A DNA stretch of 64,000 nt from Steinernema hermaphroditum (taxonomy: Eukaryota > Nematoda > Chromadorea > Rhabditida > Steinernematidae): assembly GCA_030435675.1 (NCBI GenBank), contig CM059622.1, positions 9,362,001 to 9,426,000 on the forward strand, written 5' to 3'. The notes under the pieces are model-generated. The model was not told where the DNA came from. It did no database searches and was given only the letters and a program-made list of their open reading frames with translations. Both the position numbers and the translations under genes were made by a program. This document shows, in pieces, positions 30,952 through 48,797 of this stretch (positions are counted from its first letter, which is position 1; every line of letters begins with the position of its first letter).

Positions 30952-31720
30952 TTAGTTGAACCAGTTCTTTTTCCCAGTTGAACCACAGTTCTTCTTTATC
31001 CGGTCGAGCAGATCTTCAGTCCGTACCTTTGCATCGTGAGTGGATTCCGCGTCGTTCATTAAGTTAAGTGTGAACGGGAGATCGCCGTCGTCTTCTTTCG
31101 AAAAGCAAGTGAACGCCGTTTCGTATTCTCCTTTAGCGGTCTGCGTCTTGTAATATTCGTCATCGAATACTTGCACTACTTCACTAGCGAAGCCGAGCAC
31201 GCTGTTGCTCTCCAGGTGGATGGGAAGCCGGCTCGTATTGTGCACAAGTCACTGAACTGCTTCTGCTTCTTCTCCTACCAGAGCTGATTCCAAGCGAGCA
31301 GTGTTCTCTGCGAATTCAGAATTCATGCGGTTCCATGATGTACAGCGCCTAGTGTTGTCGGGCGAAATGTACCGTTATCACTTTTGACTCGTTCGGCTGT
31401 GCCCGTGTCGTACGCATAATACGAACAGGAATCCTCGATTCTTTTGTAGATCGGTCGGTTTCGTGCAGCGAAGACAGGCTGTGGTGATTTCCGTTTCGGA
31501 GATCGAAGAATTCGAATCCTAGCTGATCTAAGAGATCAGTGCCAATGATCATATCGTGACCGAACGTGTCTGCTGCCACTGTGAATTTAACGGTCGGTAG
31601 TTCTGTTTCCTTATATTGGACGGGGAGATCTATTTCGCCAACAACCTTGAGAGGTTGACCATTGGACGCAATGCACGGGCGTCTGTCCACCGTATGAGTG
31701 GTATGTGGACAATAGATCCC
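30952..31720 (-). pseudogene. Ty3/gypsy fragment: aspartic protease region and downstream linker
   Basis: Minus-strand frame 31349-31720 has the C-terminal part of a retropepsin-like domain, including DMIIGTDLLDQLGFEFFD. A second frame at 30952-31245 is a charged linker without a known domain. Together with 28038-29778 it represents one retrotransposon read right to left and interrupted by the element at 29793-30912. Confidence 0.7.
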
Positions 31721-32030
31721 CGGGACAATAGATCCCCGGGACAATAGATCCCCGGGACAATAGATCCCCGGGACAATAGATCCCCGGGACAATAGATCCC
31801 CGGGACAATAGATCCCGGGACAATAGATCCCGGGGACAATAGATCCCAGTGGGACAATAGATCCCCGGGACGATAGATCCCCGGGACAATAGATCCCCGG
31901 GAAAATAGATCCCCGGGAAAATAGATCCCCGGGAAAATAGATCCCCGGGAAAATAGATCCCCGGGAAAATAGATCCCCGGGAAAATAGATCCCCGGGAAA
32001 ATAGATCCCCGGGAAAATAGATCCCAGGCA
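31708..32030. repeat. 16-bp minisatellite with an embedded CCCGGG palindrome
   Basis: About 20 tandem copies of CAATAGATCCCCGGGA, shifting in the second half to a variant with AAAATAG in place of ACAATAG. Each unit contains GATCCCCGGG(A), nearly self-complementary. The period is not a multiple of three, so the long open frames across it are by-products of repetition. Confidence 0.95.
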
Positions 32031-36407: not shown

Positions 36408-37432
36408 ACCCGTTACAATGGGCATTGCAGTCGTACTAGTACCGACTGCTGTGAATTTTTGCAACTTCGTGGCCATGTTTTGGGCACATGCCTTAATTTA
36501 GGGCCGCGGAGTTTATGTGCGTTCCACTTCCCAGCCCACCCTCTATCCGTCCCGCCACACCGCAGCCCGATCGGCGCGTATCACTTCGAGTAGTTCCCTT
36601 GTGAGTGTGTGCTGGATTCAGAGATCTTCATGGACCTTTTCACATCGTCAAGCTGCTACAATTGTTTCAAAGAATGGGCGGAGCAGTTCATCTGAATGCG
36701 TTGTCATTACCATAAAGAGTTCATTTGTATATGTTTCGCATAATAAACTGTCAAAAGCGATTTATTTTGTTGTGTTCTGGATATTGGGTTCTATGAACCT
36801 CAATTTGATTATCTCGTATGTCCTTATCGTGGGTGGCAGAAAGTCCTTGGATTCTGAGATAGACACAGTGCAAGATCGTCCATTTCGTGTATTGTTGCGC
36901 CACGGAATAGGAAGCAACAATGATTTCTCCTTTGTTCAACTGCAGGTTGAGCGCTTCATAGCATGCCTGGCCTAAGCCGCCCATGTTGACTCTGTGATTC
37001 TTCAGTCTTCCATCTCCGCGACCTCTATTACATGCTTATCGTCTGGCGTTTTCACCTTACTCACCATGTTCCTTTCCATTTGTTGTACGTATGAGCAAAC
37101 CATTTCAGAGGCAAAGAACATCACCTCAAAGGAAATTATGGATTCATCTAAACCGGAAAAGGCCGAACTCGGGGAAGCCATCAGAATCACATGCTTTTGG
37201 ACCGTCATATGACTCAGAACCGCATCATCCCTCCACTGACCTTCTAGGAAATCAGTCCTATCATGAGGACACAACAAAAACAGTCCTTATCACCGACCAT
37301 ATCAGGTTTGTTGTCCATTCTATTCCACTACACAAACCGAGAACGAGAAGGTACTCGCTGCTCTTTTAGGCGAGTGCTGGGAAACATCTCGAATATCAAT
37401 ATCGCCCCGGGAGAAGGCTGAGGCTTTATTAA
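36408..37432. other. Unassigned stretch left of Harbinger copy A
   Basis: About 1 kb with two modest minus-strand open frames (36751-36984 and 37002-37277) that lack recognisable domains and convincing splice structure. A minus-strand CPHDR...W phrase near 37270 hints at a zinc-binding motif but is not enough to call a gene. The last three bases (37430-37432, TAA) are the left target-site duplication of Harbinger copy A. Confidence 0.4.
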
Positions 37433-37433
37433 T

Positions 37434-37815
37434 GCTACGGCCACGATCGCTGCGTCCTGCGTCGTGCGTCGTGCGTCCTGCGTCGTGGGGTGGCCACGAT
37501 CGCTGCGTCGTGCGTCGCGCTCCGTGCGTCCTGCGTCGTGCGTCGTGCGTCCTGCGTCGTGGGGTGGCCACGATCGCTGCGTCGTGCGTCGCGCTCCGTG
37601 CGTCCTGCGTCGCGCTCCGTGCGTCCTGCGTCGTGCGTCGCTCGCTGCGTCGTGCGTTTTTTGGAGGGTGGCCACGATCGCTGCGTCGTGCGTCCTGCGT
37701 CTTGCGTCCTGCGTCGTGCGTTGCTCGCTGCGTCGTGCGTTTTTTGGAGGGTGGCCACGATCGCTGCGTCGTGCGTCCTGCGTCGTGCGTCCTGCGTCGT
37801 GCGTCCTGCGTTTTT
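37434..37815. repeat. Left subterminal minisatellite array of Harbinger copy A
   Basis: Tandem phrases built from GCGTCGTGCGTCCTGCGTCG, punctuated five times by GGCCACGATCGCTGCGTC. The same arrangement in reverse complement fills 39930-40188, so the long TIRs of this element are themselves tandem arrays. Copy A has one extra unit of about 20 bp compared with copy B. Confidence 0.9.
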
Positions 37816-37819
37816 TACA

Positions 37820-38437
37820 ATGGCGAAAAAACGCGTCGACCTCGACGCGTTTTTTTCGTTTTTTTTTTCGACGATATAGACAGCTTGAAGAAAAAGTGGC
37901 GAAGCTTGCGTGATCGATACAAAAAGCTGAAGAAAGCGGGACCATCCGGAAGCAGCGCTGAAGTCCGCGAGGAGCAGCAGAGCTGGCCTTATTATGAAGC
38001 GCTCCGCTTCACTGATGCATACGACGAGGATCGTGAATCGTCAGTTCAGGAGAAATGTGGATTTACTTATCCTGACCAATTCTAGGATTTCCTGCGCAGT
38101 TCCGTCTTCGTTGTCAGCGGTTTCTTTGAGCGAGTCGGAAGACGATCTCTTCTCCAGTTCGCCGGCCCCCAAGAGAACGAAGCGAAGCCGAAAAGCCGAA
38201 GAGGATGTGAATCAGTTGCTTCAAAAAGCAAATTCATGTTTGGAACAAGTTTTGGCCCCAGCAACTGATGACTGCGAACTATTTGGACAGACTGTCGCCG
38301 CGACACTTCGACGTTTCCCCCTTCAAGCGCGAGAGTACGCCAAGGTCGAAGTTCAGCGATTGCTGTACAATTTGGAGTTTCCTTCGCAAAGACCTGCCGA
38401 GGTTCCATCCGAGCATTTCTTTTACACTGATATGTGA
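37820..38437 (+). CDS. Harbinger-encoded MADF-type DNA-binding protein, copy A
   Basis: Second gene of the element; in this superfamily it helps bring the transposase to DNA and into the nucleus (family knowledge). After ATG 37820 the frame is interrupted at a 10-T run near 37860; one extra T would restore it. The frame then reads DDIDSLKKKWRSLRDRYKKL and SWPYYEALRF, typical of MADF. A 43-bp intron (38057-38099) leads to exon 2, which is Ser-rich with a PKRTKRSRK basic patch and a helical C-terminus. The same T run is present in copy B, so the lesion, if real, predates their duplication; an unrecognised intron or start is also possible. Confidence 0.7.
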
Positions 38438-38557
38438 TTTAATGTTGTTACCATTGCCATGAAACGTTTGTTGCCATGTCGTATAGTCTTGGTTCGTGGT
38501 GATTTCCAGATGTTACCGTAATCATTCTGTTGTGCTAAAGCCAACCTCTGATTTCAG

Positions 38558-39849
38558 ATGAATATACGAAAAAAACGAATTGCTGCCGCCCTTGTGGTCC
38601 AGCAAGCGTTACTGGTCCTCAAGAAGAGTCAGATCAAGAAGCGTCGATTCGGAGTGCACGAAATCTGCCGGGATCGGTCAACATTGGGCGAATTCTTCCA
38701 CCTTCTACCGCAACTAAAGAAGGACGATGCGAAGTTTTTTGAGTACTTGAGGATGAAGCGAAGTACCTTCGAGAAGCTGCTCGGTCTGGTGGAGTCAGAT
38801 CTCAAACCGAAGATGCAGAAGAAGATGAGCATTTTGCCGGAACAGATGCTCGTAATAACTCTTCGATTCCTTGCGACTGGGATGTCGTTCCGCAGTCTTC
38901 ATTTTGCCTTTCGTCTTGGACGGTACGTTTTTTGATGCGGCATACTAGTTCTTGCTGTTTTAAGATCCACCATAGCGAATACCGTCCGGGAAACGTGTCG
39001 TGTTCTTCTGAACTCGCTGAAATCGTACGTGACGTTCCCGTCATCTCCATCCCAGTGGAAAGCGATCAGCGCTGAGTTTCAAAGATGGTGGGACTTCCCG
39101 CATGTTCTGGGTAAGAAATGCCTCTTGACTAGTAAATTACAAGTGATTTAGGATGCATAGACGGGAAGCACATTCATGTCAACAAGCCTATGAAGTCTGG
39201 AAGCCTCTACTTCAACTTCAAAGGAGGATTTTCAACAGTCCTTCTGGCCGTTTGTGACGCGCGCTATCGCTTTTTATACTATGACGTCGGCTGCTACGGT
39301 CATCAGCACGATAGCCATGTGTTCGCCCGAAGTTCGCTTGGTAAAGGGATCGAAGACAATAGCATCGCCTTTCCCGAAGATGAACCTTTTCGATCAGATG
39401 GTCAGAACATACCGTATTTCTTTCTTGGCGACGGTGGTTTCCCGCTAAGCAGTCGATTAATGAAGCCGTTTTCCGGAAATACGAAGCCAGAAGAGGCTAC
39501 GTTCAACTTCCGGCTTTCTCATGCCCGAAATGTCATCGAAAATGCGTTTGGTATTCTTTCGGCTCGATGGAGAATTCTGCTTAAGGATATTGAAACAAGC
39601 GTCGATCTTTCGGATCTCATTGTCGCTTCCTGCATCCACCTGCACAATTTCATTATGGAGGAGGAATCGCCTGGAGCTCCACGAAACGAAGAAGCCAGCG
39701 AAAATTTGAGACTCCAGTCAGCGCCTGTCCAACCTCTGCGATCATCGTCTGCCACTGTTATCGCTCGCAATGTTCGCAATTATCTGATGGACTTCTTCGA
39801 AAACGAAGGCGCAGTGCCGTATCAACACTCGCGGGTGATATTCTTTTGA
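38558..39849 (+). CDS. PIF/Harbinger DDE transposase, copy A
   Basis: Three exons (38558-38922, 38965-39110, 39152-39849) encode 402 residues without stops. DDE_4-type features: VLGCIDGKHIHV with the first Asp, NFKGGFSTVLLAVCDARYRF, YDVGCYGHQHDSHVF, FLGDGGFPLSSRLMKPF with the second Asp, and RLSHARNVIENAFGILSARW with the catalytic Glu. The N-terminal part is helical with KRRFGVHEICRDRSTLGEF. An acceptor GATTTCAG directly precedes the ATG. The protein is identical to that of copy B over every stretch compared. Confidence 0.95.
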
Positions 39850-39929
39850 CGTGATCTTGGTTGTGATGTTTTGATACAATAAATGACCCACAGTTTACAG
39901 TAGCTCATTAGAACGCATCGGATGACGCA

Positions 39930-40188
39930 GGGGGGTGGCCACGACCGCAACGCAGCGACCAGAAGACGCAGGACGCAAGACGCACGACGCTGCCGTACGA
40001 CGCAGCGATCGTGGCCACCTCAGCAAAAACGCGCGACGCAGGACGCACAACGCAGGACGCACGACGCAGGACGCAGCGGCACGACGCAGCGATCGTGGCC
40101 ACCCTCCAAAAAACGCACGACGCAGCGAGCAACGCACGACGCAGGACGCACGACGCACGACGCAGGACGCAGCGATCGTGGCCGTAGC
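39930..40188. repeat. Right subterminal minisatellite array of Harbinger copy A
   Basis: Reverse-complement counterpart of the array at 37434-37815, with repeated GACGCAGCGATCGTGGCC and ACGCAGGACGCACGACGCA phrases up to the element end. Confidence 0.9.
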
Positions 40189-40189
40189 A

Positions 40190-40910
40190 TCTGTCCCAAA
40201 TGCGGAACAGCCTACCTGAGCCCCTTTGTGCTTCCTTGTGGTCATTCGATCTGCAAAAACCGCTACGAGGAGAATGACTGCGAGGGCATCTGTGGCGAAC
40301 AAAGCTGCCAAAGACGTTTCCACAAGGAGGACCGAGTCGTGGAGAACAAGACGCTGAACGGTAGAAGCAGCCTCTTCTCACAATGCCTGACTGATTCTAG
40401 GACTTGTCCAATGCATTCTTTCCCTTCAATGTGAAGAATCGAGGAGCGGATCTGCTCACTCTTTGTCTTTCGGGTGCGCTCACTGCAAGGACGACGTCGG
40501 TATTACGTTAAAGGTGCCTACCGTACCCTTTGTGATGTAACAAATGGCTTTAGATCACGGTTAAAGACAAACGAAGAGAGGAAAAAAAGAAGAAGAAATC
40601 AACGCCTCCTACAGCCCCAATTGAGCAAAGAAGGGAGGAAGAACCGACGTCTCCTACAGCTCCAATAGAGCACAGAAGAGAGGAACCGACGCCTCCTACA
40701 GCTCCAGCAGAGTACAGAGGGGAGGAAGAATCAACGCCTCCTACAGCCCCAGTCGAAGAAGAGTTCGTTCAACCCTCAGCGAATCCGTTTTTGGATGAAC
40801 CCGAAGGTGCGCTGTTCCCCACACCGCCGCCATCTCCCCCAAGGCCCACAGAATTCGCCAATGATCAGAAGATCAGAAGAAAGGAGCTAACTGATATCCC
40901 TGGAATCTAA
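40190..40910 (+). pseudogene. RING-type zinc-finger gene, 3' part (displaced from its start)
   Basis: Open from the transposon edge: CPKCGTAYLSPFVLPCGHSI followed by further Cys/His residues, a RING-like pattern, then after an intron a second Cys cluster (CAHCKDD), then after another intron a tail in which an STPPTAP-type phrase with intervening acidic/basic residues repeats four times. A stop is at 40908-40910. A further short open segment (41001-41102, ending NGEDA) could be an extra 3' exon. The start codon and first eight codons lie at 44035-44059 on the other strand (see findings). As arranged here the gene has no start of its own, so it is probably inactive. Confidence 0.75.
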
Positions 40911-41231
40911 CAGAAGGATGTGATGCAATTCGAGGTGGGGCGAAGTTCCCCAATCACTTTATCTCGAGGAACGTTTCAGGCGAAAAGAATTAGAAACGCC
41001 AAAATGCTTCTTGGATATTATCTGGACATCATGGACCAAGACAGAGAGAAGTTTCTCCGAGAGTTAAAGGACGAGTTCAAGTTGAATGGCGAAGATGCGT
41101 AGGCGTGCTGTGACGCGATCGCTGGATTCTCTGAGAAATTTGTCGCTAGTCGAAGGTAATAGTGAATAAGGCGGGGAACGCACTCCCCCTCTCTGAAAGA
41201 GAAAAGCCAGAATTGATAAAATGGTGATCGA

Positions 41232-41237
41232 AATAAA
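41232..41237 (+). terminator. AATAAA poly(A) signal of the displaced RING gene
   Basis: AATAAA lies inside the inverted segment, about 320 bases after the stop at 40910 and 130 bases after the possible last exon, on the same strand as the gene fragment. Confidence 0.5.
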
Positions 41238-41635
41238 GATTGTATTTGAACATTCCCATGACTGTACGCCCGTCGGTTAAACCGTAGGCTCTTATGCTAC
41301 GGCCACGATCGCTGCGTCCTGCGTCGTGCGTCGTGCGTCCTGCGTCGTGCGTTGCTCGCTGCGTCGTGCGTTTTTTGGAGGGTGGCCACGATCGCTGCGT
41401 CGTGCCGCTGCGTCCTGCGTCGTGCGTCCTGCGTTGTGCGTCCTGCGTCGCGCGTTTTTGCTGAGGTGGCCACGATCGCTGCGTCGTACGGCAGCGTCGT
41501 GCGTCTTGCGTCCTGCGTCTTCTGGTCGCTGCGTTGCGGTCGTGGCCACCCCCCCTGCGTCATCCGATGCGTTCTAATGAGCTACTGTAAACTGTGGGTC
41601 ATTTATTGTATCAAAACATCACAACCAAGATCACG

Positions 41636-42927
41636 TCAAAAGAATATCACCCGCGAGTGTTGATACGGCACTGCGCCTTCGTTTTCGAAGAAGTCCATCA
41701 GATAATTGCGAACATTGCGAGCGATAACAGTGGCAGACGATGATCGCAGAGGTTGGACAGGCGCTGACTGGAGTCTCAAATTTTCGCTGGCTTCTTCGTT
41801 TCGTGGAGCTCCAGGCGATTCCTCCTCCATAATGAAATTGTGCAGGTGGATGCAGGAAGCGACAATGAGATCCGAAAGATCGACGCTTGTTTCAATATCC
41901 TTAAGCAGAATTCTCCATCGAGCCGAAAGAATACCAAACGCATTTTCGATGACATTTCGGGCATGAGAAAGCCGGAAGTTGAACGTAGCCTCTTCTGGCT
42001 TCGTATTTCCGGAAAACGGCTTCATTAATCGACTGCTTAGCGGGAAACCACCGTCGCCAAGAAAGAAATACGGTATGTTCTGACCATCTGATCGAAAAGG
42101 TTCATCTTCGGGAAAGGCGATGCTATTGTCTTCGATCCCTTTACCAAGCGAACTTCGGGCGAACACATGGCTATCGTGCTGATGACCGTAGCAGCCGACG
42201 TCATAGTATAAAAAGCGATAGCGCGCGTCACAAACGGCCAGAAGGACTGTTGAAAATCCTCCTTTGAAGTTGAAGTAGAGGCTTCCAGACTTCATAGGCT
42301 TGTTGACATGAATGTGCTTCCCGTCTATGCATCCTAAATCACTTGTAATTTACTAGTCAAGAGGCATTTCTTACCCAGAACATGCGGGAAGTCCCACCAT
42401 CTTTGAAACTCAGCGCTGATCGCTTTCCACTGGGATGGAGATGACGGGAACGTCACGTACGATTTCAGCGAGTTCAGAAGAACACGACACGTTTCCCGGA
42501 CGGTATTCGCTATGGTGGATCTTAAAACAGCAAGAACTAGTATGCCGCATCAAAAAACGTACCGTCCAAGACGAAAGGCAAAATGAAGACTGCGGAACGA
42601 CATCCCAGTCGCAAGGAATCGAAGAGTTATTACGAGCATCTGTTCCGGCAAAATGCTCATCTTCTTCTGCATCTTCGGTTTGAGATCTGACTCCACCAGA
42701 CCGAGCAGCTTCTCGAAGGTACTTCGCTTCATCCTCAAGTACTCAAAAAACTTCGCATCGTCCTTCTTTAGTTGCGGTAGAAGGTGGAAGAATTCGCCCA
42801 ATGTTGACCGATCCCGGCAGATTTCGTGCACTCCGAATCGACGCTTCTTGATCTGACTCTTCTTGAGGACCAGTAACGCTTGCTGGACCACAAGGGCGGC
42901 AGCAATTCGTTTTTTTCGTATATTCAT
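41636..42927 (-). CDS. PIF/Harbinger DDE transposase, copy B
   Basis: Exons 42563-42927, 42375-42520 and 41636-42333, the mirror image of the copy A gene, with the same 402-residue product and the same DDE motifs. Both copies keep open frames, so either could supply transposase. Confidence 0.95.
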
Positions 42928-43047
42928 CTGAAATCAGAGGTTGGCTTTAGCACAACAGAATGATTACGGTAACATCTGGAAATCACCACGAACCAAGACT
43001 ATACGACATGGCAACAAACGTTTCATGGCAATGGTAACAACATTAAA

Positions 43048-43665
43048 TCACATATCAGTGTAAAAGAAATGCTCGGATGGAACCTCGGCAGGTCTTTGCG
43101 AAGGAAACTCCAAATTGTACAGCAATCGCTGAACTTCGACCTTGGCGTACTCTCGCGCTTGAAGGGGGAAACGTCGAAGTGTCGCGGCGACAGTCTGTCC
43201 AAATAGTTCGCAGTCATCAGTTGCTGGGGCCAAAACTTGTTCCAAACATGAATTTGCTTTTTGAAGCAACTGATTCACATCCTCTTCGGCTTTTCGGCTT
43301 CGCTTCGTTCTCTTGGGGGCCGGCGAACTGGAGAAGAGATCGTCTTCCGACTCGCTCAAAGAAACCGCTGACAACGAAGACGGAACTGCGCAGGAAATCC
43401 TAGAATTGGTCAGGATAAGTAAATCCACATTTCTCCTGAACTGACGATTCACGATCCTCGTCGTATGCATCAGTGAAGCGGAGCGCTTCATAATAAGGCC
43501 AGCTCTGCTGCTCCTCGCGGACTTCAGCGCTGCTTCCGGATGGTCCCGCTTTCTTCAGCTTTTTGTATCGATCACGCAAGCTTCGCCACTTTTTCTTCAA
43601 GCTGTCTATATCGTCGAAAAAAAAAACGAAAAAAACGCGTCGAGGTCGACGCGTTTTTTCGCCAT
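43048..43665 (-). CDS. Harbinger-encoded MADF-type protein, copy B
   Basis: Mirror of the copy A gene: exon 1 at about 43429-43665 with the same 10-base homopolymer frame problem, intron 43386-43428, and exon 2 at 43048-43385 with the basic patch and helical C-terminus. Confidence 0.7.
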
Positions 43666-44034
43666 TGTAAAAAACGCAGGACGCACGACGCAGGACGCAC
43701 GACGCAGGACGCACGACGCAGCGATCGTGGCCACCCTCCAAAAAACGCACGACGCAGCGAGCAACGCACGACGCAGGACGCAAGACGCAGGACGCACGAC
43801 GCAGCGATCGTGGCCACCCTCCAAAAAACGCACGACGCAGCGAGCGACGCACGACGCAGGACGCACGGAGCGCGACGCACGACGCAGCGATCGTGGCCAC
43901 CCCACGACGCAGGACGCACGACGCACGACGCAGGACGCACGGAGCGCGACGCACGACGCAGCGATCGTGGCCACCCCACGACGCAGGACGCACGACGCAC
44001 GACGCAGGACGCAGCGATCGTGGCCGTAGCAAGA

Positions 44035-44059
44035 GACATTCCTTGGGCAGCGAACGCAT
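44035..44059 (-). pseudogene. RING-type gene, first eight codons (displaced 5' end)
   Basis: Minus-strand ATG at 44059 opens a frame MRSLPKEC followed by one base, then the AGA/TCT site and Harbinger copy B. A splice acceptor (CAACTTCAG) lies two bases before the ATG, as in other genes here. Joined through one TCT to 40193 onward on the plus strand, the frame runs directly into the RING-like cysteines. Confidence 0.7.
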
Positions 44060-44334
44060 CCCTGAAGTTGAAGGAGTAGAGGCACACGGTACACAGGCTA
44101 TTTGGGGCGTTGTGTGTTTGTCACACAGAAATGTGCAAGTTGGTCGGTCTTGATAACGATAGAACTCTCTCGTCACGCTTCTGGCACCGATAACGCCAAT
44201 AACGACCCCAGTTACACTTCGGAAGGCATCATAATCTGAGGCTAATAGGAAGTTCAGACCCTAATCTAATTGATTGCAGCGGCGCTAAGGGAGTCGTCTT
44301 CAGGCATCCTTTCGGGATACGTTTTCGCGCGTGA

Positions 44335-44380
44335 CGCAAATAGGAAGTTACCGATAATTATCGGTAACTTCCTATTTGCG
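44335..44380. repeat. Perfect 46-bp palindrome
   Basis: CGCAAATAGGAAGTTACCGA followed by TAA and then the exact complement, with no loop. It could extrude as a cruciform. It abuts the next palindrome with no spacer. Confidence 0.95.
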
Positions 44381-44430
44381 AATTAAGGCGGACAATGTTC
44401 TTATCGATAAGAACATTGTCCGCCCTAATT
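44381..44430. repeat. Near-perfect 50-bp palindrome
   Basis: AATTAAGGCGGACAATGTTC then TTATC and its complement; a single mismatched pair (44386 with 44425) in 25 pairs. It begins at the base after the first palindrome ends and lies about 30 bp before the splice acceptor of the BAF gene. Confidence 0.95.
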
Positions 44431-44471
44431 CACAGTAATGCCCTAAGCGTTGCTTTTTCAGTGTGGTCGCG

Positions 44472-44788
44472 ATGGTGAAACCCTCGAAGCACTACGACTT
44501 CGTTCCCGAAAAAATCAACGACAAATATGTGGAGGCACTGCCTGGCATTGGTGCCGCTCATGAGGGCCGCCTCACAGGGAATGTAAGTCTCGCAAAAAGA
44601 ATTTGTAGCAGGTCATTTAGGGTTACGGTAAGGTGGCGAAACTTTTCGGTCGGTACCTTATGTGCGATGAAAACATCGGCCAGTTCGACTCTTTTCTATA
44701 CACGCATGGAGTGACATACTGTAACCATCGTGGAAACGTGTGTGAAGCTTTCCAAGAGTGGTCCGATAGGCATCTGGGTCCTCTTTAA
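44472..44788 (+). CDS. BANF1: Barrier-to-autointegration factor
   Basis: Small dimeric DNA-bridging protein that links chromatin to LEM-domain proteins of the nuclear envelope (family knowledge). Two exons (44472-44582, 44621-44788) encode 92 residues, against 89 in human. Family features: KHYDFVPEKINDKYVEALPG near the N-terminus, then GIG of the helix-hairpin-helix, and C-terminal NVCEAFQEWSDRHLGPL matching the CFxxLxEWCDxHL end. It differs from typical BAF at several positions (for example HEGRL for the usual GxxL region). Acceptor CTTTTTCAG lies 11 bases before the ATG; AATAAA at 44820-44825. Confidence 0.85.
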
Positions 44789-44819
44789 CAATGGTGCTGT
44801 GAGAGATATTCTTGTGTGA

Positions 44820-44825
44820 AATAAA
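44820..44825 (+). terminator. AATAAA poly(A) signal of BANF1
   Basis: AATAAA 32 bases after the BAF stop codon, in the expected range for a compact gene. Confidence 0.6.
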
Positions 44826-45065
44826 TTCTCGAGAGCTTATGCCCCTCTTCGTCACACCTCAGTTCCTGTCTAGACAAACATTCCAGACAATGTCAATCTT
44901 TTTGCCAAGAATTCCCGTCTGAGATCGGTCGGTTTTCCACCGCTCCAAACTGAATTTCACTACAAATGACCTCCACTTTCTGCAAGGCTTTTCTGGTAGA
45001 CAGACACTGAAGGCGGTGCGTTTTTTTTTGGTGATGTACTTGAAACTTAGACAGTCTCTGCAGTC

Positions 45066-46353
45066 GTTGCTGCACCGGACTCTCGGACTGTGTCGCCGCT
45101 TCCGTCTTCTGAACTCTGTAGCCATGGGCGACGTCCACCTGAAGCAAAGTCCTTTACGATACAACTGCTGTGGACAAACCTCGATCTCCAAGTCAAGATC
45201 CTCGGTGCACCGAGGACATTTTAAGGACTGTGAGAGAACTTTTAGAGCGCTGATTCTAGACCGTTAGTTTCACGTTATAATCACCAAACCCTTTGTCTGC
45301 TTCCAAGTCAAGGAATCAACGAATGACAGTTTGCCTTTAAATAAGGATACCGGGTCGTGTATTCAAGGGAAAGGTAGTTCGAGCCGACGACGTCCACAAC
45401 TTCGCCTCCTTCTTGTCAGAGATCAAAGACCGTCAACGATTCTCCTCGTTTTCTGATAAGACCCTTACTTCCCATTATGTCGAGCGACGAGGAGTCACTT
45501 TCTTCCGGGCATTCATCCTATTCACACGTAGATTCCTCTCCAGGCGCCCCTTCCGACTCGTCCGGTGCATCAGATCTGGACTCTTCTGAGAGCGGAATCG
45601 AGAACTCAGGTACAGACTCACACCACTTTCACCTTTCAGTTGCCATTTCACAGATCTCCAGATGCCAGAGAACATCAGCGCTCCAAAAGTTCTCTCGATT
45701 TTACGATTTTATTTCGCGAATCAAAGGCATTATGCCTTGCGCGACACCGAAAATAGACAAACAGAGGATGTCTGGAAGACGACTTCATCCCTGGCGCGGC
45801 GTAGATGTCGAACCGGTGGTTGGCGGAGAGCTTCATGGGGCTTCTGGGAATCGGCAAATCTTCGGATTCAGGAGCGGAACATCGTTTGCGGCACAGCGCA
45901 CGCTTCTGTGCTCGAATCTGATGGTCCGTGGTCCGGGAGTTGCGTCTTCGATGGTGATGGCGTCCTCAGAGCGTCGGCGACCTTCGGGATGACTTCTCAC
46001 GTGGCCGGATTCTTGACGTCGGACATCTTGTTTGTCAGCGGTGGTGGGACTACGGCTTCCGGGTGTCCCAATTCCCTCTGGAAGCCGGAACAGTCACAAC
46101 TGCCACGGGGTTTGCCATCTGACCGACCAGACACTCAGAGAGCGACGGGAGGGACCGACCGCTCGCCACCGCGACACAAGTTCTCTCACAGTCCTTAAAA
46201 TGTCCTCGGTGCACCGAGGATCTTGACTTGGAGATCGAAGTTTGTCCACAGCAGTTGCATCGTAAGGGACTTTGCTTCAGGTGGACGTCGCCCATGGCTA
46301 CAGAGTTCAGAAGACGGAAGCGGCGACACAGTCCGAGAGTCCGGTGCAGCAAC
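45066..46353. mobile_element. Inverted-repeat element with 176-bp arms
   Basis: 45066-45241 and 46178-46353 are reverse complements with few mismatches, both containing the palindrome CCTCGGTGCACCGAGG. They enclose about 940 bp. No transposase domain was recognised, so the superfamily is unknown. Confidence 0.75.
45477..45612 (+). CDS. Acidic Ser-rich N-terminal exon of unknown protein
   Basis: Starts MSSDEESLSSGHSSYSHVDS and stays Ser/Asp/Glu-rich until a plausible donor at 45613. The following sequence has no recognised domain and the downstream exon structure could not be established. It lies inside the inverted-repeat element and may be a fragment captured by it. Confidence 0.35.
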
Positions 46354-46520
46354 AACCTCTCCAAAGAACGCTTGATCATGAACCCACCGGTAGCTACAGT
46401 TACACCGAGAAGGACTTGAAGGTTTACATGTATGAGTTGCGATAATTGTCACCGAAAATGCCACAAAAAGAGGTTGTCATGGATAAGTAGCCGGGTCAAG
46501 ATAACATATCATGGAATGAA

Positions 46521-47399
46521 TTAGTGGAGCTCCACGAGCCTCTCCCGCATCTCAGCGGCCTTCGTCTTAATTCCCTCAGCCTTCCTGCGCACATCTGCCT
46601 CCAACCCATCCAGGTGCTCCTGGGGAAGAAACGCCTCCTTGACATTCCTTTCGGCCAGTCCAAAGTCCGCCAATTCAGAAGTTAGTCCCTATAGTACACG
46701 ACTGGCTACCGTACACCGTCTCCTAACCTGCACCGCCACGCTCAGCCGACTGTGGAGGTCCTCGACCGCCTCCGTGAGCCTTAGGATCGCCTTCACCGTC
46801 TCCTTCTTCTGCTCGGAGATCGACTTCGTCGCCGAGCGCCTCGATTCCGCCGAGGCGAAACGGACGGCGACGATGGAGTGGACGCCGTGTGTGGAGAGGT
46901 GCAGGAATCCACAATGGCCACACACGATGTCCTAGAAGGGAGTTGAAGTCTTTAGAGGGGGCCGACCTTCTGAAGGACGGAGTCCGTGCAGGTCTTGCAG
47001 ACCAGCACCTTGTCGCTCTTAACGGTATCGGCGCACTTAGAGCACGGGAAGGGGACCTCCTCGCCCGGCCACTCTTGGTTCTGCTGGCGTTTGTACTGCT
47101 CGACGATGTCTAAAGAGAGTCAGAGGAGTGACTTTCTCCAACTGACCCTTGAGGATGTAGTTGACGGGAAGGCGACCTTCCGTCTTCGTGGGGCTTCTGC
47201 AAACGGGACAGGCGACAGTTTCGGCCCTCCTGTGGACCTTGAGCAGTTGCGAATGGCACCTCCGGCAGACCGTGTGGCCACAGGCCATCTGGATGGGTTC
47301 CTCGAAGAGTGTCCGGCATATGGGGCAGTCGAGAGAGTTCGGGGAGAGGCAGACGGTAAAAGTTGCGCTTTCACCCATTTCGTAGAGGAGAAATGACAT
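46521..47399 (-). CDS. RING-finger and coiled-coil protein (TRIM-like, no C-terminal domain)
   Basis: Four exons (47147-47399, 46967-47109, 46728-46931, 46521-46688) encode 255 residues. RING: LDCPICRTLFEEPIQMACGH then CRRCHSQLL and CPVCRSPT, a C3HC4 pattern, so a probable E3 ubiquitin ligase. A second zinc-binding region (FPCSKCADTVKSDKVLVCKTC, then CGHCGFLHLSTHGVH) resembles a B-box. The C-terminal half is helical and likely a coiled coil. An acceptor CCCTCTAG directly precedes the ATG. No direct evidence links it to the broken RING-type gene nearby, but both are RING proteins within 8 kb. Confidence 0.8.
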
Positions 47400-47744
47400 C
47401 TAGAGGGCGTCGGCGACGCTGATAAGCCTTCTGACCGCCGCTTGGAGGCATTCCAAATAAACAAATCTGTTTGCACGTGATCTAAATTATGAGTCAAACG
47501 TGACGAAATGACCAAAACAACACGGTTTGTTAGTTAAGAAGATACGAAATTGTGGAAAAAGGGTACAAGGTTGTGAAAGATCATGAACGCGGCTTCGTTG
47601 TGCGAGTTGCAGTAGTTCGAAGCAGAGAAAATCGTCACCACGTGACCGTTGTGGCGCCATTCGCAGCCCTGAAGGAGGGGATAGAGCACATAGAGGAGGG
47701 GAGCGTACCTGTTGGACGGCTTCGTGCGCCCTTGCGATGAAGTT
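47400..47744. other. Short region between RING gene and MULE relic
   Basis: About 340 bp; a 62-residue open frame at 47552-47740 has no known domain and may be the decayed upstream part of the MULE relic. Confidence 0.4.
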
Positions 47745-48797
47745 GAGTCCGTTGTTGTGAGTGCTCTCCGTTATCGCACTACTGCCCTCGAAGGACAGAG
47801 AAGTCTACCAGAAGCTGTTTACCGAAGTGAAAAACGCGCTGATCGCAGAATTTGGCGATTTGGGGATGCCTAAGCGATTCCATTTCGACATGGAAATTTC
47901 AGCGATGAATGCATGCAGACAGGTTTTTCCGGAATCCCGCATAACTACGTGCTACTTCCACTTTGCTAAAGTAGGTCCTGTTTATACTGGTAGATCTGTT
48001 ATTAAACTCTTTAGAACATTATGGACAAAGTGCATCGTGTGGGACTACGAGATTACTACGCCGACCGTGATGACACATCGATGTACAACTGGATCAGAAT
48101 CTTCATCGGAAGTGCACTTCTACCCAGGGACTTGTTTGACGAGCGGATATGGCCATATATCGAAAGAAACGTGCCTCAAGGACGCGACTCCGCAGAAGAA
48201 GTCAATGTTCGCAGCTTTGCGACTAACTACATTGGTGACTACCGGAAGAACCATAGAAAAACTTGGGATCAATTCGACAATGACGGGCCACGGACGACAG
48301 ATCATGCTGAGGGATGGCATAATCAACTCCGGTCGTTATTCCCTGCAGTGCATCCTCAATTAGGACTATTCCTGAAAGAAATGCGGAAGGAAGTCAATAG
48401 TCAAGCCATCAGAGGCGAAGAACTCTTCAAGGGTCAGGAATCCTGATCAGGAATCCTGACTCAGGATCTGCCGAAACTCCGAAGAAGAGACAATAGTCGG
48501 GCTGAAGAACGGATGCTCGTCGCGAAAACTAAGTTGATTAACGCGATCGCTTCGCTTAACGACCGCGAATTGAACATATTGGTAGGATCTAGTATTTTCT
48601 CATTGACCATATTATTGTTTTAGGACCTTGTACGGTACTGCAAGCACCAAGCTAAGAATTGCTCAGCGAAAACGATCACCAGTTTGCTGGTACTCGGTTC
48701 TGGAAACCAATCGGATGACGAGTTCGATCTCGTCCTGGACCCAGAGGAGCCACCGTTGAGAACAGACGATGAGTTGATGCTCGACTTTGGGGATTAG
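47745..48797 (+). pseudogene. MULE-type transposase, copy B, 5'-truncated
   Basis: The catalytic region is well preserved: LLPSKDREVYQKLFTEV, HFDMEISAMNACRQVFPESR, CYFHFAK, an intron, then MYNWIRIFIGSALLPRDLFD, YIGDYRKN, and DHAEGWHNQL, the MULE signature. A stop-containing stretch near 48445 is followed by a C-terminal segment (LVRYCKHQAKNCSAKT) ending at 48797. The N-terminal FLYWCH/MULE start is missing. Clearly related to copy A at 32108 but much less decayed. Confidence 0.75.

What the first reader, a model, noticed from the sequence alone, without database searches (positions are those of the whole stretch)
37430..44034. Two near-identical Harbinger elements whose target-site duplications show the segment between them was inverted
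Copy A is flanked by TAA (left) and TCT (right); copy B by TTA (left) and AGA (right). Neither copy has matching duplications as the sequence stands. If 40190-41294 is reversed, one copy is flanked by TAA/TAA and the other by TCT/TCT; PIF/Harbinger elements make 3-bp duplications. Two independent 3-bp matches appearing only after reversal are unlikely by chance. This fits recombination between the inverted copies, either in the genome or, less likely, as an assembly artefact.
Basis: partly seen in the sequence, partly recalled or inferred. Interest (0 to 1): 0.88.

Follow-up and report, generated by a model that had tools for sequence, protein, structure and literature searches.

The report
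Transposon pair flanking an inverted segment
In an insect-killing nematode, a stretch of about 1,100 DNA letters between two mirror-image copies of a jumping gene appears flipped; a second, transposon-free copy of the same region elsewhere in the genome shows the original order, so the rearrangement can be read clearly, though its general type is already known.

Summary
Copies A (37433-40189, +) and B (41295-44031, -) of a PIF/Harbinger transposon have no substitutions between them and carry mismatched flanks TAA/TCT and TTA/AGA. A transposon-free duplicate on C4 (2.0% mismatches) is collinear with the window except that 40190-41294 lies the other way round; its aligned pieces overlap by exactly TAA and AGA, one copy of each predicted duplication. 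A host RING-type gene reads through the AGA site on C4 and in a Steinernema glaseri relative, but is split onto opposite strands in the window. So the inversion followed insertion, on C2. The mechanism is open: recombination between two inverted copies is my first choice, but one aberrant transposition with ends from sister chromatids (hybrid element insertion) predicts the same exchanged duplications and identical copies. The AGA target is odd: 14 of 16 other two-ended elements have TAA or TTA duplications. Assembly error cannot be excluded without reads. Known kind of event; modest interest.

The parts
37433..40189 (+). Copy A of the PIF/Harbinger element (2757 bp)
   Evidence: terminal inverted repeat of about 60 bp (37432-37492 with 40130-40190, 97%)
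41295..44031 (-). Copy B of the same element (2737 bp), inverted relative to A
   Evidence: 0 mismatches to A, 22 gap columns
37430..37432 (.). TAA, outer half of target-site duplication 1
   Evidence: single TAA at the matching empty site C4:6245556-6245558
41292..41294 (.). TTA (TAA on the other strand), displaced half of duplication 1
44032..44034 (.). AGA, outer half of target-site duplication 2
   Evidence: single AGA at the matching empty site C4:6246570-6246572
40190..40192 (.). TCT (AGA on the other strand), displaced half of duplication 2
40190..41294 (-). Inverted middle segment, 1105 bp; lies in the opposite orientation in the element-free duplicate on C4
39190..39849 (+). Transposase exon of copy A with DDE_Tnp_4 domain (E 9.8e-25)
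41636..42295 (-). Same transposase exon in copy B
37994..38437 (+). Open frame of copy A with a weak BESS match (E 0.023, 15 bits against a cut-off of 21); possible accessory protein
44032..44059 (-). First codons of the broken host RING-type gene copy
40192..41159 (+). Remainder of the broken host RING-type gene copy, now on the other strand; one Cys of the RING-like motif reads Arg (zinc-binding role is my reading), two in-frame stops before the normal end
   Evidence: window fragment zf-RING_UBOX E 8.3e-4, 19.8 bits, below the cut-off of 25.2
36651..37432 (+). Left flank, 98% identical to C4:6244777-6245558
44032..47763 (+). Right flank, matching C4 from 6246570 on in two pieces (44032-45696 at 96%, 46175-47763 at 98.6%)
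   Evidence: first piece

Best explanation
A PIF/Harbinger transposon inserted at a TAA in one copy of a duplicated host region. A second copy, probably a daughter of the first, inserted about 1 kb away in the opposite orientation at an AGA inside the first exon of a RING-type gene copy. Homologous recombination between the two identical inverted copies then flipped the segment between them. This moved the inner half of each target-site duplication next to the other element and put the two pieces of the host gene on opposite strands. Shown, for the assembled sequence: both empty sites, the ancestral orientation, exchanged duplications, insertion before or together with the inversion. Inferred: that the flip was by crossing-over between two pre-existing copies rather than in one aberrant transposition.
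For: Element-free C4 duplicate with opposite middle orientation and exact 3-bp overlaps TAA and AGA. No base lost or gained at the four junctions as printed. Inverted copies, 100% complementary over 2344-bp and 261-bp stretches and 1105 bp apart, are good substrates for recombination (general knowledge). Host gene continuous on C4 and in S. glaseri but split in the window. The same pattern of exchanged duplications was taken as consistent with ectopic recombination for a Galileo inversion in Drosophila (PMC2775673, passages).
Against: Chimeric copies, the signature that separates recombination from hybrid element insertion, cannot be seen because A and B have no substitutions between them. Two separate insertions within 1.1 kb are unlikely unless hops are local: 1.5e-4 for random placement of the four near-full-length copies that one search listed. 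The AGA target is unlike 14 of 16 other two-ended copies.
Confidence: 0.55

Rival explanations
1. Hybrid element insertion (sister-chromatid transposition) in one step. After replication of a single element at the TAA site, transposase pairs the 3' end of one sister's copy with the 5' end of the other and inserts them at the AGA about 1 kb away on one sister. The product is the second inverted copy and the flipped middle segment at once, with TAA halves and AGA halves distributed exactly as seen.
For: Predicts every junction seen, as worked out here and as stated in PMC2775673 (passages): outcome strikingly similar to ectopic recombination except that the two copies are identical. A and B have no substitutions between them and share a base (alignment column 1733) not found in the two other near-full-length copies. 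Explains proximity and inverted orientation without a second event; an aberrant reaction could tolerate the unusual AGA target (inference).
Against: Copies from a recent ordinary local hop would be identical too. One other copy (C4:16.09 Mb) has non-TWA flanks TTC/TTC, so an odd target does not require an aberrant reaction. No case for this superfamily stood out in the listings (12 of 74 shown), so the reaction is assumed for PIF/Harbinger.
Confidence: 0.33
2. Assembly artefact: the middle segment was placed the wrong way round between two identical inverted repeats, and the real chromosome has two ordinary insertions.
For: The repeats are free of substitutions over more than 2.7 kb, and restoring the orientation gives perfect duplications at both. 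No reads were available, and the assembly paper (PMC12606440) is not held.
Against: The whole structure of 6.6 kb is shorter than ordinary long reads (general knowledge), the window holds no N, so there is no marked scaffold join here, and the five large contigs seen are 16.7-18.4 Mb. The sequencing method itself was not verified.
Confidence: 0.08
3. Transposase cut both inner junctions, released the middle segment, and end joining put it back reversed.
For: Would give the same junctions if no bases were lost.
Against: Requires two precise cuts and scar-free rejoining; the four junctions are perfect.
Confidence: 0.03
4. The C2 orientation is original and the C4 duplicate was inverted; the 3-bp matches are chance.
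For: Only the C4 locus was available as an empty-site comparison in this genome.
Against: C4 alignment pieces overlap by exactly the two 3-bp sequences; the RING-type gene reads through the breakpoint on C4 and in S. glaseri.
Confidence: 0.01

Closest known systems
Galileo-mediated inversion 2z3 of Drosophila buzzatii (PMC2775673, passages)
   Same: Two copies of one DNA transposon in opposite orientation at the breakpoints, exchanged target-site duplications, single copy of each target in the uninverted state
   Different: Galileo is in the P superfamily with 7-bp duplications, and its copies are chimeric; here 3-bp duplications and copies with no substitutions, so chimerism is untestable
Alternative transposition (reversed ends, sister chromatid) of maize Ac/Ds (PMC8225341, passages)
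   Same: Transposon copies at both ends of an inversion with precise junctions
   Different: 8-bp duplications (hAT superfamily, recalled). The six inversions described there are reversed-ends events: they start from two linked elements and lose the DNA between them, which is not seen here. The passages describe sister-chromatid events as giving inverted duplications and composite insertions, not an inversion like this one
Harbinger transposons of nematodes, e.g. Turmoil-1 of C. elegans (PMC2572040, passages)
   Same: Harbinger-type transposase; 3-bp target-site duplications are usual for the superfamily
   Different: Turmoil-1 is 5,024 bp with 760-bp inverted repeats that hold captured host gene fragments. 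This family is about 2.7 kb with GC-rich subterminal arrays; captured host fragments were not looked for, and the sequences were not compared

Membership tests
PIF/Harbinger superfamily | DDE_Tnp_4 (HARBI1-like) transposase | tested here: met
   PF13359 E 9.8e-25, 87.4 bits, cut-off 24.8; 120 relatives, several named HARBI1 or ALP1-like, closest in S. carpocapsae (64%)
PIF/Harbinger superfamily | Terminal inverted repeats | tested here: met
   61-nt arms, 97% complementary, at the ends of copy A
PIF/Harbinger superfamily | 3-bp target-site duplications (the preference for TWA is recalled) | tested here: met
   14 of 16 other two-ended elements have matching TAA (9) or TTA (5); the other 2 read ATA/TAA and TAA/TAC. 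At this locus one site is TAA, the other AGA. 11 further places with a single or odd end were left out; their flanks are TTA in 4 of 11 and other in 7 of 11
PIF/Harbinger superfamily | Second gene with Myb/SANT-like protein (recalled) | tested here: inconclusive
   only a weak BESS match (E 0.023, below cut-off); a MADF-like stretch is my reading by eye
Inversion by recombination between inverted transposons | Two copies in opposite orientation flanking the segment | tested here: met
Inversion by recombination between inverted transposons | Exchanged target-site duplications, one copy of each in the empty state | tested here: met
Inversion by recombination between inverted transposons | Chimeric copies | tested here: inconclusive
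   no substitutions between A and B, so a crossover would leave no trace
Hybrid element insertion (sister chromatids) | Identical copies, no deletion or duplication at junctions, exchanged duplications | tested here: met
   two small indels (21 bp in A, 1 bp in B) in repeats are taken as later changes, which is an assumption
Hybrid element insertion (sister chromatids) | Ancestor with a single element and no uninverted double insertion | not testable with these tools
   Needs other isolates

The most novel reading that the evidence does not exclude
A natural, one-step hybrid element insertion by a PIF/Harbinger transposon in an animal: ends of two sister copies attacked a non-canonical target 1 kb away, making a second copy, an inversion and a gene break in a single reaction, with the untouched duplicate locus as built-in control.
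Probability: 0.33. Interest if true: 0.6.

Novelty: new member of a known kind. Interest (0 to 1): 0.42.

Why it matters
Here a duplicate locus, 2% diverged and in the same genome, supplies both empty sites and the old orientation, so order and junctions of a transposon-bounded inversion can be read directly. The case also poses a testable question that the exchanged duplications leave open: recombination between inverted copies, or one aberrant transposition. S. hermaphroditum is described as a genetically tractable system (start of the abstract of PMC8874337, listing), so comparison of isolates could answer it. The inverted pair could also yield double-stranded RNA and silence the family, as reported for inverted transposon copies in maize (PMC8225341, passage); that was not tested here.

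Tried and rejected
Composite element (A, middle and B moved as one unit): rejected, because the outer flanks TAA and AGA do not match and the middle is host DNA with a duplicate on C4. Inversion on C4 instead of C2: rejected. Chance match of 3-bp flanks: rejected by the exact 3-bp overlaps on C4. Chimerism test between A and B: impossible, no substitutions. A second haplotype or alternative contig with the other orientation: none listed; one search gave the middle segment only on C2 and C4 (the tool scores best candidates only). Assembly method: paper PMC12606440 not held; in PMC12629237 the words long-read, PacBio and Oxford Nanopore do not occur (passages), and the two passages of PMC13195034 do not give it.

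Literature on exchanged duplications, hybrid element insertion or Harbinger-linked inversions: 15 of 24 papers listed; 10 of 33; 12 of 12; 10 of 10; 12 of 74; 8 of 123; 2 of 2. I opened passages only, in PMC2775673, PMC8225341, PMC11122324 and PMC2572040; the rest I saw as listings. PMC11122324 reports Harbinger MITEs among the repeats near inversion breakpoints in Anopheles, and the passages I saw mention no exchanged duplications. No PIF/Harbinger case stood out, but most listed papers were not opened, so this is no proof of absence from print.
Full report
What was checked. Copy A spans 37433-40189 on the + strand, copy B 41295-44031 on the - strand. They differ by no substitution and by 22 gap columns: a 21-bp tandem unit present only in A and one G present only in B. 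The flanks are TAA|A|TCT and TTA|B|AGA. With the window's own trinucleotide frequencies, one flank match after reversal has a chance of 0.0165 and both 2.7e-4.

Where it is. The window is C2:9362001-9426000 of a 90.6-Mb genome in 60 contigs. The lengths of C1 and C4, 18227500 and 16891469, recur in protein records named Steinernema hermaphroditum, so I take the species to be that entomopathogenic nematode; its taxonomy was looked up.

The decisive comparison. The middle segment 40190-41294 was found at one other place, on C4, in two pieces at 96-97% identity and in minus orientation. The left flank was found at two places, C2 and C4. Alignment of C4:6238000-6255900 with the window gives ten rows. 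Five make up the collinear picture: window 36651-37432 forward, 41294-40680 and 40664-40190 reversed, then 44032-45696 and 46175-47763 forward. The other five rows are repeats within the region. At the two breakpoints the C4 pieces overlap by exactly three bases, TAA at C4:6245556-6245558 and AGA at C4:6246570-6246572. These are single copies of the two predicted target-site duplications, and C4 holds no element there. With the middle reversed and elements left out, window 36651-45696 aligns to C4 over 3429 columns with 69 mismatches (2.0%) and 117 gap columns; 87 of the gap columns lie in the 45-bp repeat of the host gene. With the middle as in the window, BLAST gives two forward and two reversed pieces instead (one further row is a palindrome).

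Polarity. The duplications match only in the C4 orientation. So the C2 segment had that orientation when the first element arrived, and the flip came later or, in the one-step model, with the second copy. Independent support comes from a host gene. On C4 a RING-type gene of three predicted exons starts at C4:6246597 on the minus strand and reads MRSLPKECL-CPKCG through the AGA/TCT site. The protein QR680_004811 (P0121), recorded on a contig of C4's length, is identical to this prediction over its first 201 residues; a 15-residue stretch is absent after that, and its last five residues differ. A relative in S. glaseri (P0122, 43-44% identical) has LPKECLCPKC without interruption. In the window the first 28 bases of this gene lie on the minus strand at 44059-44032, and the rest lies on the plus strand from 40192. 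This copy has a Cys to Arg change in the RING-like motif and two in-frame stops before the normal end, so it looks like a decayed copy; whether decay began before the insertion is not known.

The family. The transposase exon matches DDE_Tnp_4 at 9.8e-25, and its closest relative is from S. carpocapsae at 64%. A search with 1293 bases of the element listed nine matches: four at about 100% (A, B, C1:9.87 Mb, C4:16.09 Mb) and five partial ones at 65-70% (counts are lower bounds). The terminal repeat pattern with up to 2 mismatches occurs at 40 places, with 0 control matches. A variant pattern occurs at 46 places with 2 control matches, so a few of its weakest hits may be chance; the two lists overlap. 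Among 16 two-ended elements other than A and B, 14 have matching duplications, 9 TAA and 5 TTA; one has ATA/TAA and one TAA/TAC. Eleven further places have a single or odd end and were left out of this count; their flanks are TTA in 4 of 11 and other in 7 of 11. One of the seven, the C4:16.09 copy, begins at an internal TGGGGTGG and is flanked by TTC on both sides. So the AGA target of one insertion here is unusual but may not be the only unusual one.

Mechanism. Two routes give exactly these junctions. In the first, a second copy inserts near the first in reverse orientation and the pair recombines. In the second, one reaction uses the 3' end of one sister copy and the 5' end of the other and joins them to a target nearby. 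The second route keeps the old left junction at A and carries the old right junction, with the reversed segment, to B, and it makes the AGA duplication anew. The Galileo paper says the same: the outcome is strikingly similar and differs in that copies are identical after hybrid element insertion and chimeric after ectopic recombination (PMC2775673, passages). The maize paper lists non-identical flanking duplications as the mark of recombination when compared with reversed-ends transposition, a different reaction from the sister-chromatid one (PMC8225341, passages). Here the copies are identical in substitutions and share one base, column 1733, not found in the two other near-full-length copies, which fits a mother-daughter pair, though it is one site. 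That is what one step predicts, but also what a recent local hop predicts. The unusual target and the closeness (1.5e-4 for random placement of four copies) lean slightly to one step; the general ease of recombination between long inverted repeats (general knowledge) leans to two. I give 0.55 to recombination and 0.33 to one step; these weights are judgement.

Limits. No reads, no other isolate and no outgroup chromosome were available. Assembly error is unlikely because the structure is 6.6 kb with no N in the window, but the sequencing method was not verified.

Verdict. A well-supported, small transposon-bounded inversion of a known kind, with an unusually clean internal control and one open mechanistic question.

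Noticed in passing
G000 C4:16095432-16098100 (L045): Near-full-length copy lacking the outer 53 bp of its left end; it begins at an internal TGGGGTGG repeat and is flanked by TTC on both sides, as if an internal terminus-like repeat had served as transposon end.
   Followed up: partly
window 37450-37811 and 43674-44013: GC-rich subterminal arrays of 7/14-bp units that contain repeated terminus-like motifs. In the C1:9.87 copy the left end differs and its frame shows more of what I read by eye as a MADF-type protein, with a stop in frame; in A and B the array occupies that place.
   Followed up: partly
window 36651-47763 and C4:6244777-6249781: Interchromosomal duplication of about 5 kb of host DNA (elements excluded) at 96-99% identity, with sharp ends.
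   Followed up: partly
window 40602-40751: Host gene's 45-bp coding repeat (about 3.4 units) is 87 bp longer in the window copy than in the C4 copy.
   Followed up: no
window 44335-44434: Two adjacent palindromes of about 46 and 55 bp, also present on C4.
   Followed up: no
window 45063-45254, 45697-46174 and 46175-46353: Inverted repeat of about 180-190 bp, and a stretch of 478 bp in the window absent from the aligned C4 pieces.
   Followed up: no
window 31707-32025: Array of about 20 copies of a 16-bp unit, 96% matches.
   Followed up: no
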